A stretch of DNA of 64,000 nt from Solicoccozyma terricola (taxonomy: Eukaryota > Basidiomycota > Tremellomycetes > Filobasidiales > Piskurozymaceae). The stretch covers positions 289,862 to 353,861 of the forward strand of contig BCLD01000015.1 of assembly GCA_001600875.1 (NCBI GenBank). Reading direction: 5' to 3'. The position numbers and the translations under genes were made by a program. This document shows positions 1,095 to 10,023 of the stretch, piece after piece. A model generated the notes under the pieces. It did not search any database and was not told the origin of the DNA. It saw nothing but the letters and a program-made list of their open reading frames with translations. Position 1 is the stretch's first letter. Every line of letters begins with the position of its first letter.

Positions 1095-2680
1095 CTAGAC
1101 ACTCTTAATGAGAGCGAACAAACTCAAGATGAAGAATGCCAACGCACTCCAGTGTACGAAAGCGGAACGATGGACGGTTTGATGGATGAAGATTGCAAAT
1201 AGTGCCCATGTGAGGACCTTGGGGAAGAAGGAGGAGGAGGAGGAGGAGGAGGAGGAAAAGATCAGTTGCTTGAAGAGATGGGCGGGGGATTGAGGGAGAG
1301 AGGAGCACTTACAGCTGCACCAGCTGCATCACCTTCACTGCTAGCAAATGCATAGGCAGTAGCAGTAGCCTCCAAAAAGACCTTTCAAACCCCATGTCAA
1401 ATCCACCACCAGTTAGTTCTTCTATACAATTTTTCCCCCCGGTGCTCTGAGGAATTTCAGAGACTTTGGAAGAAAAAACACTCACAAACGCCAAAAAGAC
1501 GAAGATCTTGGTGAATATCCCGGCTTTATGGTGTTGAGCGTCCACTCCGAAAGCTTGGAAGCCACTGACGATCACGAGTACGATGGTCCCTACCGGCAGA
1601 ACCCCCCATGCGCAGGTCATCAGCACCCTTCGCGGAACCACCCAACCAGCCAATAAAAAGAAACGGCAAAAACTCACAACCATGCCATAGCGAAAACGGT
1701 AGATGGACGAACAACTCTTGTGCAAGACTTTCAGATTTATGTTGAGTCTTGACGATGTAATAGCATTGAGATACAGCAGCTGATACGAGGAGGGATAAGA
1801 TGAATGCTACGATGTAGTCTGTGGGATGTGAGGCAGAAGAGACAAGTAAGGGTTAAAAGGACATTGATTTCGTTGTGGGGAGAAGGGAAAAATTTCTGTA
1901 CTAACGTTCTCGTCCCCAGACGTAGGTGTAGACTGCGTTGAGTACACCAAGGAGAGCGAATCGCCATGAGAGACCGTCAACGATGATTGATTTACCCTTT
2001 TCGGCTGTGTAGAGATGGAGAGGATTGGGAGATGGGTTAGCGATAAGTGTTATGAGAACGTGGGAGGCAAAAGATGATTCAACGTGTATAAGGAAACAGG
2101 ATTCAAACAGTATAGCTGGCTGAGCTCGCGGAAAACAGTGTTATTCACTAAGTTCGGCCAGAAAATGCTTGCTTCGCTCCCGAATAAAGGAATAAAGGCT
2201 CCCGAAGGAGGAAAGGAATGCTAGCTGCGCTCGCGAAAGAGGAAGGAGAGTATATAGCTCGCTACGCTCAGGGAGAGAATGCTGGCTTCGCTCGCGACGA
2301 AGAGAGAATAGCTCGCTACGCTCGCGGAAATCAACATACTTCGCTACGGTCAGGGAGAAAATGCTCGCTTCGCTCGCGAAGAAAGGAATGCTCGCCACGC
2401 TCGCGGAACTCAACATCCTTCGCTACGCTCAGATTGAGAATGCTCGCTTCGCTTCGCACTCGCACTCGCACTCACTAAACTGATAAATCATCGTTCCCAA
2501 TAAACACAAATGAATCAAACTCCAGATCCACAACGCATAATAACTCGGGGTGATATAAGTTTCCTTTCCATACCCATGCGTTCCTTCCGGTGAGACAGAA
2601 TTGTAGATGTTCCCGGAGAGGGAGAAAAAGAAGACGATGATGTTGACTACTTTGATGAGGATACCGTCTGTCCAAGCCAT
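1095..2680 (-). CDS. Polytopic membrane protein of unknown function, six exons
   Basis: Spliced model (minus strand): 2476-2680, 1906-2004, 1674-1818, 1486-1627, 1313-1381, 1095-1217; 260 aa. Hydrophobic segments alternate with short loops: an N-terminal span after MAWTDGIL, a span at YYALWIWSLIHLCLLG, one at WRFALLGVLNAVYTYVW, then YIVAFILSLLVSAAVS, a segment ending FSLWHG, VLPVGTIVLVIVSGF, and two C-terminal spans. The arrangement is reminiscent of fungal TspO/MBR-like or DUF1774-type membrane proteins, but I cannot assign a function. Phases agree at all five junctions. The weakest is intron 3, whose 5' site reads GTTTTT; the stronger GTGAGT four bases upstream on the coding strand would put a stop in frame. 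Intron 1 (471 nt) is several times longer than the others and is filled with a hairpin repeat array. Confidence 0.7.
2117..2475. repeat. Degenerate tandem hairpin repeat filling intron 1
   Basis: About eight to ten imperfect units of roughly 30-45 nt share the core GCTCGCTtCGCTCGCGAAGA. Each core contains the inverted repeat CTTCGC-TC-GCGAAG or a variant such as CTACGCTCGCG. Units are separated by purine-rich spacers (gaaagga, gagagaat). The array ends exactly at the intron's 5' splice site (minus-strand GTGAGTGCGAGTGCGAG), so the splice donor is embedded in repeat sequence. The same kind of array occurs in intron 1 of the oxidoreductase gene near 9.7-9.96 kb. Confidence 0.8.
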
Positions 2681-3131
2681 GGCGAGAGGAGGTGGATGTG
2701 GTGATAGACGTTGATGTAGATGATGATGATGATGATGTGAGCTGAGATGGCTAGCAGCCGAGTGGACTTGGGAGGCTGAATGTGCTTCCTTTGGTGTTCG
2801 TGACGTCACCGGAATGCCATACCACGACCCCGGCACCACGTCATTCCCCACCCGCCCGGTCAACTCCGGGTGATAAGCATTCGCCACCTTCGCCACCCTC
2901 GCCACCCTCGCCACGTCATTTCACCCTTAACGCCGACACGCCGACACGCCCAACCCCGTCATCCCGCCCCAAGCGCACCGAGATCTGCGCCTGTTCTTGT
3001 CTCCCCCTCCCTGCGCTTCCCACTCCCATCGTTATCCCACCACCCTACCCATCGTCCGCATCACCCCTCCCTGAAACCCCCGATTCCACCACCTCACACC
3101 CTTCAAGATCCCATCAAACAACACTGCAAAA
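2681..3131. promoter_or_regulatory. Divergent promoter region (membrane protein / eL36)
   Basis: 451 nt separate two outward-facing start codons. The half next to the eL36 gene is strongly C- and T-rich on the plus strand, with almost no G runs, as is common upstream of fungal ribosomal protein genes. A (tcatca)-like microsatellite lies near 2718-2740. No specific factor site is claimed. Confidence 0.55.
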
Positions 3132-4196
3132 ATGACGGACGTTGAGATGACTTCCACCAAGGAGACCTCAGTTAAGGCTCCTCGATCTAGTGCGTTTTAA
3201 GATTGTTTGGGATGGAGTTGAGGGGGATAATTGGGTGGTGGTTGCGTGGTTGGTTTTGGATTCAAATGTGGTGATGCGACGGGTGCTGGATGTCGGATTT
3301 GAAAAGGGGAAGGAGGGAGAGGATAGCCGAATCACCATCGTATCACCATGCGAAAGAAGAACCATACAACACCAAATCACCCCCAACATCCCATAAAAGT
3401 CTGTCGATTAACGCAAATACTAACATCCCACCCATCTTCCCTTCATTTCCTTTTATCCAGACTTCCGATTCGGACAGAACAAGGGTCGACCAACTACCAC
3501 CATTGCAAGGAAGACTCAACCATCTCACAGGAAGGGTGTCCAGACGTGCGTTCTTTCAGAGGAAGGTGGTTATACGGATCGGTCGAGCAGATACTGATGG
3601 TTGTGATAATTTTTCTTCTGTTTTTCTTCTTTCGCCTTTCTCTTATCTTGGGACTTTGTTGTTGTTTGGTGGTGCTGTGCTGTTGCATCGATGGATATAT
3701 TCGTTGGGGTCGGATCGGTCATACAACACGATCTTCTCTCCGCGGGACATATGGATAATGGAACAATCTGGACTCCCTTTCTCAAAAAAAAATTAAAAAT
3801 CTTCTACAACCCTTCATCAAAATCCAACAAAACCCATGTGCACCCACCATATATCAATTCTCCACCATACACCCCCCACCCAATTCTCAAACATCCAACA
3901 GCGAGAAGAAAGTCTTCGTCAAATCCATCGTCCGAGAAGTCTGTGGTTTCTCTCCATATGAGAAGCGAGTGATGGAACTCTTGAGGAATTCCAAGGATAA
4001 GAAGGCTAGGAAGCTCACAAAGAAGAGGGTGAGTCTTCTGTCGTGGGGACTGGGAGTGGGATTGCATGCTTGACATCAATACTGATTCGTTTGTGGGGGG
4101 GATTTTTCTCAGCTCGGTACGCTCCTCCGATCAAAGAGGAAGCTCGAGGAGCTCCAAGCTGTTATCCAGGAGAGCAGGAGGCAAGCAGGTCATTAA
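3132..4196 (+). CDS. RPL36: Large-subunit ribosomal protein eL36
   Basis: Exons 3132-3189, 3461-3545, 3902-4028, 4113-4196; 117 aa. This is a structural protein of the cytosolic 60S subunit. The product has the eL36 signature order: FRFGQNKGRPTT near residue 21, a basic middle (ARKTQPSHRKG), VREVCGFSPYEKRVMELL in the core, then KARKLTKKRLGTLLRSKRK and a C-terminal ESRRQAGH. An N-terminal extension of about 20 residues (MTDVEMTS...) precedes the conserved part and is longer than in many homologues. Introns of 271, 356 and 84 nt interrupt the gene, and all phases match. It is divergent from the membrane protein gene and convergent with CK2 beta. Confidence 0.93.
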
Positions 4197-9111: not shown

Positions 9112-9152
<41 letters not shown>

Positions 9153-10023
9153 CCCAAACCGCCCTTCCCCATCCCAAAAACCTTCAACTTAAACCCCCCC
9201 CCCCCCCCCCCCCCCAAACTCACAACTCAATCCCAGCCTTTTTCCCTTTCTCAATCAAACTCCTCTCCACAACCTCAAACCTATCTTTCCCAAATTTCTC
9301 CACATATCTCGTTCTCTTACATGAAGGAGTTTCACTTAATGTTGGATCCAATAAAAATGGATGAAATTCGATTTGGAAATCTAATCCTAGTTCAGCAGTT
9401 CGAGAGCATTGAATTGCACGACGGAGGTTTGAAAGACCGAGCATGCAGAATGGACCTGTGTGGGGTGTGGGGGGGGGGGGGTGGGGGGGTGTTGCGAAGC
9501 GTGCGATGCGTGCGATGCGTGCGAAGAGGAAAAGTGAAGATGGTTTGGTAAATGTCGAGGATAAAAGAGAGTTGCAAGGAAATATAAAAAAAAAAACGGG
9601 GTAGAAGAGATGGGGAAAAAAAAGGGACAATGTCGATCACTCAAATGAGTCTCGGAAGAAGGCTCACGAACAACAAAAGGAGAGATTTGGTCGATACGTT
9701 CGCGGGAGAGAATAGTGATTGCTCACTACGTTCCCGACGAGAGTGATTGCTCACTACGTTCGGCGAAGAAAGTAGGGATTGCTCGCTGCGCTCGCGAAGA
9801 GTGATTGCTCACTACGTTCGCGAAAGAGAGAGTAGTAATCACTCGCTTCCTCCTCACTCGCGAAGAGCCGAACGAATGCTTCACTCCGTTCTCAAAGAAA
9901 CGATCACTCTCTTCCCTCTCGAAAGAAACGAACGTTCACTACCGCTCCACTCGCTTACTCACAAATGGCATCCGAAGTAATATCAACCTTTATAGTCTTC
10001 TTCATTATATCTTTCCCCGCCAT
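8327..10023 (-). CDS. DsbA/FrnE-type thioredoxin-fold oxidoreductase
   Basis: Exons (minus): 9963-10023, 9224-9455, 8735-9002, 8327-8623; 285 aa. DSBA-like proteins have a thioredoxin fold with a helical insertion and act in thiol-disulfide or isomerase chemistry. The first exon ends in a lone T that joins the next exon to rebuild the active site C21-P-F-C24 inside ITSDAICPFCMLGL, directly after the first beta strand. Later come YHRLIHHAYAKGG in the helical insert and the cis-Pro loop GVPFFVFGNKYAISGAQPPE typical of the FrnE branch. The C-terminus adds a CSSC motif and a Glu/Lys helix. There is no obvious signal peptide, so a cytosolic or mitochondrial role is more likely than secretory. Intron 1 (507 nt) carries a hairpin repeat array; introns 2 and 3 carry long G and C tracts with ambiguous bases. 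Confidence 0.88.
8624..8734 (-). repeat. Intron 3 of the oxidoreductase: complementary G and C homopolymers with ambiguous bases
   Basis: Plus strand shows G19 at 8629-8647 and C15 at 8697-8711, with 11 ambiguous bases between 8648 and 8689. On the coding strand the G-tract lies near the 5' splice site and the C-tract runs straight into TACAG. The poor base calls between two complementary homopolymers suggest the sequencing itself was blocked there. Confidence 0.75.
9194..9215 (-). repeat. 22-nt C homopolymer (G on coding strand) beside a 5' splice site
   Basis: On the coding strand this reads GTGAGTTT followed by 22 G at the start of the oxidoreductase intron 2. A poly-A tract (poly-T on the coding strand) follows at 9113-9150. 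The 3' end of the same intron (9003-9040) is C-rich on the coding strand. Confidence 0.75.
9685..9962. repeat. Degenerate tandem hairpin repeat filling intron 1
   Basis: Six to eight imperfect units of about 28-40 nt carry the core GATTGCTCACTACGTTCGCGAAGAG. It closely resembles the 2.1-2.5 kb array (GCTCRCT-CG-TCGCGAAGA). As there, the array reaches the first 5' splice site of the host gene (minus-strand GTGAGTAAGCGAGTGGAGCG). One unit, at 9776-9801, is almost identical in core to units of the first array. Confidence 0.8.

What the first reader, a model, noticed from the sequence alone, without database searches (positions are those of the whole stretch)
2117..9962. Hairpin-forming tandem repeat starts at the first 5' splice site of two different genes
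The arrays at 2117-2475 and 9685-9962 share the core GCTCRCT-CGyTCGCGAAGA with a CTTCGC/GCGAAG inverted repeat. Each fills intron 1 of a minus-strand gene right up to the GTGAGT. Both host introns are about 500 nt while neighbouring introns are mostly 45-220 nt. Inverted, degenerate copies also occur in the intergenic region at 7480-7575, and a fragment near 11165-11200. An element that repeatedly lands at or grows from a first donor site would resemble introner-like or intron-expanding repeats. The hairpins could also act as intronic enhancers.
Basis: partly seen in the sequence, partly recalled or inferred. Interest (0 to 1): 0.75.

Follow-up and report, generated by a model that had tools for sequence, protein, structure and literature searches.

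The report
Hairpin repeat arrays at intron starts
An unnamed jelly-fungus relative carries roughly two hundred (estimated) short arrays of tiny hairpin-forming repeats, which in the part examined lie almost always inside early introns, in the same direction as the gene and right after the intron's first bases, a placement that ordinary junk repeats would not show.

Summary
Both arrays sit in intron 1 (471 and 507 nt) of minus-strand genes, against a GTGAGT donor. Genome-wide, GTGAGT is followed within 30 nt by the unit core in transcript sense 48 times (46 distinct donors) and in antisense twice. In 21 sampled stretches, 26 of 529 predicted introns carry sense arrays: 24 of 26 lie within the first 450 coding bases, and in all 26 the array is nearer the donor than the acceptor. 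"First intron" is too narrow (12 of 26). The 15-mer core GCGARCGNAGYGAGC can fold, on the sense strand only, as two G-C pairs, tandem G.A, R-Y, C-G and a GNA loop, the loop class of the ultra-stable DNA mini-hairpin. R and Y are coupled genome-wide (GC 532, AT 234, GT 19, AC 22). Two further hairpins also carry GNA or GNNA loops. Tandem cores recur in prokaryote and viral contigs with the same coupling. Introner membership fails: splice sites are not part of the repeat. Best reading: a sense-strand mini-hairpin minisatellite that grows in transcribed 5' regions and survives where splicing removes it. Mechanism and function are untested: no transcript, population or sister-species data were available.

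The parts
1095..2680 (-). Host gene 1: predicted membrane protein conserved in basidiomycetes (some homologues named DUF1774-domain); the predictor overextends its 3' end to 63, the end at about 1095 is my reading of the conserved part
   Evidence: 513 homologues with E up to 1e-3; best named hit Saitozyma podzolica, 68% over 100% of the query, hence across the intron-1 junction
2005..2475 (-). Intron 1 of host gene 1, 471 nt, donor GTGAGT at 2475
   Evidence: prediction
2115..2475 (-). Array 1: transcript-sense units (GCGAGCGNAGCGAGC and variants), higher-order period 79 nt x 2.4 copies, base period about 28
8327..10023 (-). Host gene 2: DSBA-like thioredoxin-domain protein (PF01323); its predicted intron 3 holds a stretch with scattered N near 8648-8690
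   Evidence: E 2.6e-26, residues 13-215, spanning the intron-1 junction at about residue 20
9456..9962 (-). Intron 1 of host gene 2, 507 nt, donor GTGAGT at 9962
   Evidence: prediction
9685..9962 (-). Array 2: transcript-sense units, several of the GCGAACGTAGTGAGC form; periods 60 and 28 nt
7479..7571 (+). Degenerate array of the same unit in predicted intergenic DNA, opposite orientation; exception to the intron rule

Best explanation
The arrays are a dispersed family of mini-hairpin minisatellites. Shown: the unit's 15-nt core has the sequence of a hairpin on the transcript-sense (non-template) strand, with two G-C pairs, a tandem G.A step, an R-Y pair that changes in a coupled way, a C-G pair and a GNA loop. 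In the sample the arrays lie mostly in early introns, in sense, against the donor, share composite blocks between loci, and carry local higher-order duplications. Inferred: when the first few hundred bases of a gene are transcribed, the non-template strand is exposed (R-loop or supercoil-driven extrusion). There the cGNAg and cGNNAg hairpins fold and provoke slippage or templated re-copying during repair, so arrays lengthen locally and seed other early introns in the same orientation. Exons purge them; introns hide them because splicing removes them. In an intron of 60-90 nt the main free space is the stretch just after the donor, so arrays anchor there, and older units are pushed toward the 3' side and decay.
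For: Sense vs antisense next to GTGAGT: 48 vs 2; second unit form 5 vs 0. Inter-intron BLAST of 26 array introns (up to 3 HSPs per pair): 625 plus HSPs, 0 minus. 24 of 26 array introns within 450 coding nt vs 158 of 491 array-free introns, Fisher p 7e-10. Gap to donor smaller than gap to acceptor by more than 35 nt in 26 of 26, medians 22 and 185 nt. Windows shared with another array intron (at least 21 of 24 bases): 57% at 60-120 nt from the donor, 9% or less beyond 480 nt. R4-Y10 coupling genome-wide: GC 532, AT 234, GT 19, AC 22. Loop not assumed: GNA in 95 of 112 GC-form and 50 of 50 AT-form cores. Exact perfect-stem hairpins in array introns: GNA loop 17 vs TNC 0, GNNA loop 12 vs 0. GNA or GNNA loops with at least two G-C pairs define the ultra-stable DNA mini-hairpin, Tm 78 C for GCGAAGC (passage of PMC4686876). 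The same tandem core occurs in at least 116 prokaryote stretches and 40 viral contigs; cores there are GC 301, AT 22, GT 2, AC 0, so structure rather than a fungal protein looks like the common factor. Splicing across arrays is supported by RPS23 (145 of 145 residues aligned without a gap, two array introns removed), by guanylate kinase and by ICln.
Against: No transcript, R-loop or population data. The decay gradient inside arrays is weak: the donor half is better in 18 of 26, median difference 0.027, Wilcoxon p 0.008, but rho is negative in only 17 of 26 (sign test p 0.17), and the first 60 nt share less with other introns (30%) than the next 60 (57%). The two perfect-stem hairpins and the overlapping 'A' stem show no compensatory excess (P 0.26, 0.89, 0.64). 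Standard DNA nearest-neighbour folding does not separate the strands (sense more stable in 14 of 26), although that model gives the core almost no stability at all. RNA folding predicts the same core hairpin on the sense strand, so RNA could be the actor. The R-Y coupling in the fungus may reflect one old double change inherited by two subfamilies. Exceptions: L048 (array antisense to a doubtful gene), L040 (donor but no gene assigned), window 7479-7571.
Confidence: 0.4

Rival explanations
1. RNA-level function: the arrays are intron-mediated-enhancement or splicing elements. Sense-strand hairpins in 5'-proximal introns raise expression, or fold the intron so that donor and branch point come together, and are kept by selection.
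For: Early introns and sense only are what intron-mediated enhancement would ask for (recalled). RNA folding of the 21 array introns of up to 700 nt (of 26): median z -1.85 in sense, -0.78 in antisense, 20 shuffles each; donor to branch-region path 17 vs 27 steps in shuffles. The sense core folds with RNA parameters and the antisense does not. Hosts include widely conserved genes such as RPS23, guanylate kinase, a CFD1/NBP35-like gene, an ATG3-like gene and condensin Cnd2.
Against: About 200 loci by extrapolation, in the sampled cases unrelated genes. GT (19) is no commoner than AC (22) at the coupled pair, although RNA should tolerate G-U. The loop class is the DNA-stable one. Recurrence in prokaryotes and viruses has no evident link to spliceosomal introns.
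Confidence: 0.25
2. Neutral minisatellite: an ordinary tandem repeat that expands anywhere; location and strand reflect only where it is tolerated (antisense copies might make pyrimidine-tract plus AG cryptic acceptors).
For: Local higher-order periods of 49-237 nt show ordinary tandem duplication. Adjacency to the donor is partly trivial in a 60-90 nt intron. Homopolymers also show strand bias at donors and acceptors.
Against: Intergenic DNA has no such filter, yet of 31 arrays 24 lie in predicted introns in sense, 1 in antisense and 6 outside; 4 of these 6 have a sense donor by eye (2 with Pfam support across the junction), 1 (L040) has a donor but no assigned gene, 1 is unplaced. Units share sequence between loci, so they did not each arise by chance slippage.
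Confidence: 0.17
3. Introner-like or transposon-like mobile element that inserts at or creates introns, by reverse splicing or as a MITE.
For: Dispersed family with shared composite blocks of 131-241 nt at 80-84% identity. Fungal introners are gene-biased and lack TSDs and TIRs (passage of PMC9860276).
Against: Splice sites are not part of the repeat: seven donor hexamers among 26 introns, variable spacer, unit-free tails of 87-762 nt. Intron length varies from 203 to 1089 nt. Internal tandem structure. No constant ends seen by eye.
Confidence: 0.1

Closest known systems
Introners / introner-like elements (algae, Dothideomycete fungi and others)
   Same: Dispersed repeat family found mostly in introns in the sample, in sense orientation
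   Different: Introners are whole introns that create new introns; here the repeat is a variable tandem array inside introns whose donor and acceptor are not part of the repeat
Ultra-stable DNA mini-hairpins with GNA/GNNA loops, d(GCGAAGC) (passage of PMC4686876)
   Same: Core contains GCGNAGC; all three array hairpins close on GNA or GNNA loops
   Different: Seen there as designed oligonucleotides; my searches listed no intron-anchored tandem family of them
[quoted passage not shown]
   Same: Structure-prone non-template-strand sequence right after an early donor
   Different: Hairpins, not quadruplexes; a related repeat family rather than composition; early introns generally
Hairpin-forming minisatellites / VNTRs
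   Same: Tandem base unit of about 27 nt (also 22-23 nt), local higher-order periods
   Different: Ordinary minisatellites are not known (recalled) for being nearly confined to early introns, in one orientation, against the donor

Membership tests
Introner / introner-like element | Copies share sequence over the whole intron including both ends, so the element makes the intron | tested here: not met
   Donors GTGAGT 18, six other hexamers 8, of 26; last 80 nt against last 80 nt gave 33 HSPs (E below 1e-3, plus strand) among 325 pairs; of the six printed, three are 20-23 nt and three belong to one pair, L038/L042
Introner / introner-like element | Intron position absent in close relatives | not testable with these tools
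   states that the genome has no relatives here
DNA transposon / MITE | Terminal inverted repeats and target site duplications of fixed length | tested here: inconclusive
   No minus-strand similarity between the 26 array introns (0 HSPs) and no constant ends seen by eye; no explicit TSD search was done
Minisatellite (tandem repeat, 10-100 nt unit) | Head-to-tail copies of one unit | tested here: met
   Core spacing peaks at 27 (50 intervals) and 22-23 (30); TRF periods of about 27 and multiples in many, while 6 of the 26 introns gave no TRF row
GNA/GNNA DNA mini-hairpin | GNA or GNNA loop closed by at least two G-C pairs | tested here: met
   GCGNAGC 146 sense vs 8 antisense in array introns, 1 in 54.5 kb of array-free introns; loops; rule. 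The AT form (GCGAACGNAGTGAGC) has an A-T next to the closing C-G, so it meets the rule only in part
GNA/GNNA DNA mini-hairpin | High thermal stability in solution | not testable with these tools
   Nearest-neighbour models give the 15-mer -0.1 kcal/mol as DNA (another pairing) and -2.1 as RNA; nothing was melted
Intron-mediated-enhancement intron | Raises expression when placed near the 5' end in sense | not testable with these tools
   Only position and orientation match

The most novel reading that the evidence does not exclude
A self-spreading DNA mini-hairpin family whose growth is directed to 5' splice sites: new units are added next to the donor by a transcription- or splicing-coupled copying process, so each intron keeps a time-ordered record with the youngest units near the donor. 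The same hairpin arises independently across bacteria, archaea, viruses and this fungus because the fold itself drives its amplification.
Probability: 0.2. Interest if true: 0.88.

Novelty: new variant of a known kind. Interest (0 to 1): 0.72.

Why it matters
It points to a route to long introns other than transposon insertion or introners: structure-driven tandem growth hard against the donor, on one strand only. With perhaps two hundred natural replicates in one small genome, the questions of why early introns lengthen and whether non-template-strand structure drives repeat growth become directly testable in sister isolates and in laboratory yeast.

Tried and rejected
Rejected: first-intron specificity (12 of 26). 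The strict introner reading: splice sites not shared. The idea that +/- array pairs about 1.1 kb apart are terminal inverted repeats of a transposon: in L032, L046 and L050 these are divergent gene pairs, each with its own sense array. Compensatory support for the perfect-stem hairpins: none found. DNA folding energy as an explanation of strand bias: no difference. Known RNA family: no match at gathering score in window 1-12000; 8 matches up to E 0.5, all below cut-off. Outward extension of the stem by Watson-Crick pairs: no clear excess in the fungus, a small excess in prokaryotes and viruses. Control hexamer GAGTGT was badly chosen: of its 12 hits 9 share the core of a donor; 3 remain against 48. 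The first two gene-finder versions over-called introns or merged genes and were replaced.

Literature: the ten searches (open-licence PMC only) listed no description of donor-anchored hairpin arrays; this is a statement about those searches and their lists, not about all print. Papers: passages seen of PMC9860276, PMC4457414, PMC3630100 and PMC4686876; abstract, opening paragraphs and outline of PMC11292364; all others as search listings only. Recalled, from no call: properties of intron-mediated enhancement, tandem G.A stability, R-loop biology, the character of ordinary minisatellites.
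Full report
WHAT IS THERE. Its proteins look Tremellomycete: host gene 1 is 68% identical to a protein of Saitozyma podzolica and 67% to one of Kwoniella dejecticola; the best hit overall, 80%, is an unnamed metagenome protein. Host gene 2 is a DSBA-like protein.

GENOME-WIDE TESTS. The 18-mer GCTCGCTTCGCTCGCGAA with up to 2 mismatches occurs 570 times against 115 for the reversed control; the exact 15-mer GCGAGCGNAGCGAGC 532 times against 14. 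From its clusters on contig 1 (21 in 2.43 Mb, my count) I extrapolate roughly 200 arrays. GTGAGT followed within 30 nt by the sense core: 48 places, 46 distinct donors, reversed control 0. Followed by the antisense core: 2. The second unit form gives 5 and 0. These counts do not depend on gene prediction, but not every GTGAGT in them was checked to be a donor.

SAMPLE. With the window this is 259 kb of non-N sequence. GTGAGT is the commonest donor and CAG or TAG the acceptor in 493 of 529. The finder is imperfect: it missed or misplaced some genes. Splicing across arrays was checked by homology in some cases. RPS23 with two array introns removed aligns without a gap over 145 of 145 residues to a solved S23 chain, 5oql_x. 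Guanylate kinase aligns across its junction. A CFD1/NBP35-like protein aligns across its second array junction with a one-residue gap nearby; its first junction lies outside the alignment. Pfam matches of DSBA, Cnd2 and a UBA-like domain span theirs, and ICln does so with 55.9 bits (48 bits for a faulty hand splice).

POSITION. A k-mer track found 31 arrays in this sample. The predictor places 24 in introns in sense, 1 in antisense (L048, a doubtful gene) and 6 outside. Of the 6, four (L033, L034, L035, L047) have a donor and a sense relation by eye, two of them (L034, L047) with Pfam support; L040 has a donor but no assigned gene; window 7479-7571 has neither. Counting exact cores instead (150 in the sample): 110 lie in early introns in sense, 3 in late introns in sense, 6 in late introns in antisense (all L048), 1 in an early intron in antisense and 1 in an exon in antisense (both L047, where the predicted minus-strand gene is wrong by my reading), 1 in an exon in sense (L040) and 28 outside predicted genes (L034 4, L035 4, L040 10, L047 10). 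By motif scan 26 of 529 introns have at least 3 sense hits; 2 have at least 3 antisense hits without a sense array, L048 and the L047 misprediction. Intron number of the 26: first 12, second 10, third 1, fourth 2, eighth 1. Coding length before the intron is at most 450 nt in 24 of 26, against 158 of 491 array-free introns (Fisher p 7e-10; first intron 12 of 26 against 63 of 491, p 7e-5).

POLARITY. The first unit lies a median 22 nt from the donor and the last a median 185 nt from the acceptor; the donor gap is smaller by more than 35 nt in 26 of 26. Much of this could follow from growth in the main free part of a short intron. Unit quality over the whole intron falls with distance from the donor (rho below 0 in 22 of 26, 13 significant, none significant the other way), but that measure also counts the unit-free tail. 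Within arrays the effect is weaker: donor half better in 18 of 26, Wilcoxon p 0.008; rho negative in 17 of 26, sign test p 0.17, 8 significant negative and 0 positive. The fraction of 24-nt windows shared with other array introns (at least 21 of 24) is 30% in the first 60 nt, 57% at 60-120, and 13% or less from 360 nt on.

RELATIONS BETWEEN ARRAYS. All 625 BLAST hits between different array introns (E up to 1e-5, at most 3 per pair) are plus/plus, none plus/minus; two of the best share 200 and 241 nt at 82-84%. Local higher-order periods (49, 55, 76, 79, 81-83, 94, 237 nt) differ by locus. So there is one family that both spreads and duplicates locally.

STRUCTURE. Core copies were collected with at least 11 of 14 matches, which favours the fixed positions; the loop middle, and the choice within R and within Y, were left free. 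Among 238 copies (118 distinct) the loop middle varies (T 83, A 74, C 47, G 34), the flanking G and A are kept (209 and 229), and the tandem G-A positions are among the best kept (225-233). Positions 4 and 10 are coupled: GC 159, AT 60, GT 10, AC 1, other 8 in the sample; GC 532, AT 234, GT 19, AC 22 genome-wide. Copies are not independent, so this may be one old double change; both forms carry all four loop bases. Without assuming the loop, GNA is found in 95 of 112 and 50 of 50. The other two hairpins, CTTCGC(GGA)GCGAAG and CTCCC(GTYA)GGGAG, also have GNA and GNNA loops, in sense 17 and 12 times, in antisense 0 and 0; their stems show no compensatory excess. GNA or GNNA loops on at least two G-C pairs are the published rule for ultra-stable DNA mini-hairpins (passage of PMC4686876). 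RNA folding gives the core hairpin on the sense strand only; DNA folding with standard parameters gives almost nothing on either strand of the core and no strand difference for the first 350 nt of the introns.

ELSEWHERE. A 24-mer of the unit is absent from prokaryote contigs and a 22-nt unit pattern from viral contigs. The tandem core pattern is present in at least 116 prokaryote stretches (scan stopped at its limit) and 40 viral contigs. My own estimate of chance, even at 70% GC, is far below one. In all 156 loci held, 325 distinct cores with flanks are GC 301, AT 22, GT 2, AC 0; the pattern fixed the first core of each pair as GC and left the second free. Not all these loci are independent: several viral contigs and two Verrucomicrobia loci look near-identical. 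One search read 120 of the 156; in 77 of 120 a frame of at least 150 codons is open across the array on one strand or the other, so some may lie in genes; context was not worked out. This recurrence is the best evidence that the fold, not a fungal function, is what returns.

MECHANISM. Shown: family, strand, early-intron position, donor adjacency, sense-only hairpin sequence. Inferred: non-template-strand exposure, hairpin-provoked re-copying, splicing as the filter that lets arrays persist. Pol theta stem-loop extension shows that hairpin-templated insertions are biochemically possible (abstract of PMC11292364). An RNA-level role remains the main rival. The tools could not decide between DNA and RNA, and no relatives' genomes were available to show gain or growth.

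Noticed in passing
introns of the window and L031-L050; whole genome G000: Strand-asymmetric homopolymers: of 491 array-free introns, runs of 7 or more G in the first 45 nt in 27 and C in 8; in the last 45 nt C in 33 and G in 3. Genome-wide GTGAGT N0-30 G10 vs C10: forward counts 218 vs 101, reverse 1435 vs 607 (inflated by overlapping matches); reversed-pattern controls 278 and 23 for G (the 278 inflated in the same way), 28 and 3 for C.
   Followed up: partly
L051-L166 (prokaryotes) and L167-L206 (IMG/VR contigs): Tandem GCGAGCGNAGCGAGC hairpins recur in Halobacteria, Nocardioides, Verrucomicrobia, Myxococcota, Lewinella and 40 viral contigs, some with up to 11 cores (L104); context and orientation not worked out.
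   Followed up: partly
L050:2820-4225 (-): RPS23 carries an array in predicted intron 2 and a small (GGAGCGAAGC)n array in its 133-nt intron 3, possibly an early stage.
   Followed up: partly
L032, L046, L050: Divergent gene pairs in which both genes have sense arrays in an early intron, about 1.1 kb apart.
   Followed up: partly
window 33264-33689: 190-nt imperfect tandem duplication, about 2 copies (87% matches in one row), apparently unrelated to the arrays.
   Followed up: no
window 38671-38974: 60- and 123-nt tandem repeats, perhaps coding.
   Followed up: no
window 8630-8712 and 11715-12060: Scattered N and a run of N beside long G and C runs: assembly is uncertain there (for the part to 12000, beyond).
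   Followed up: no
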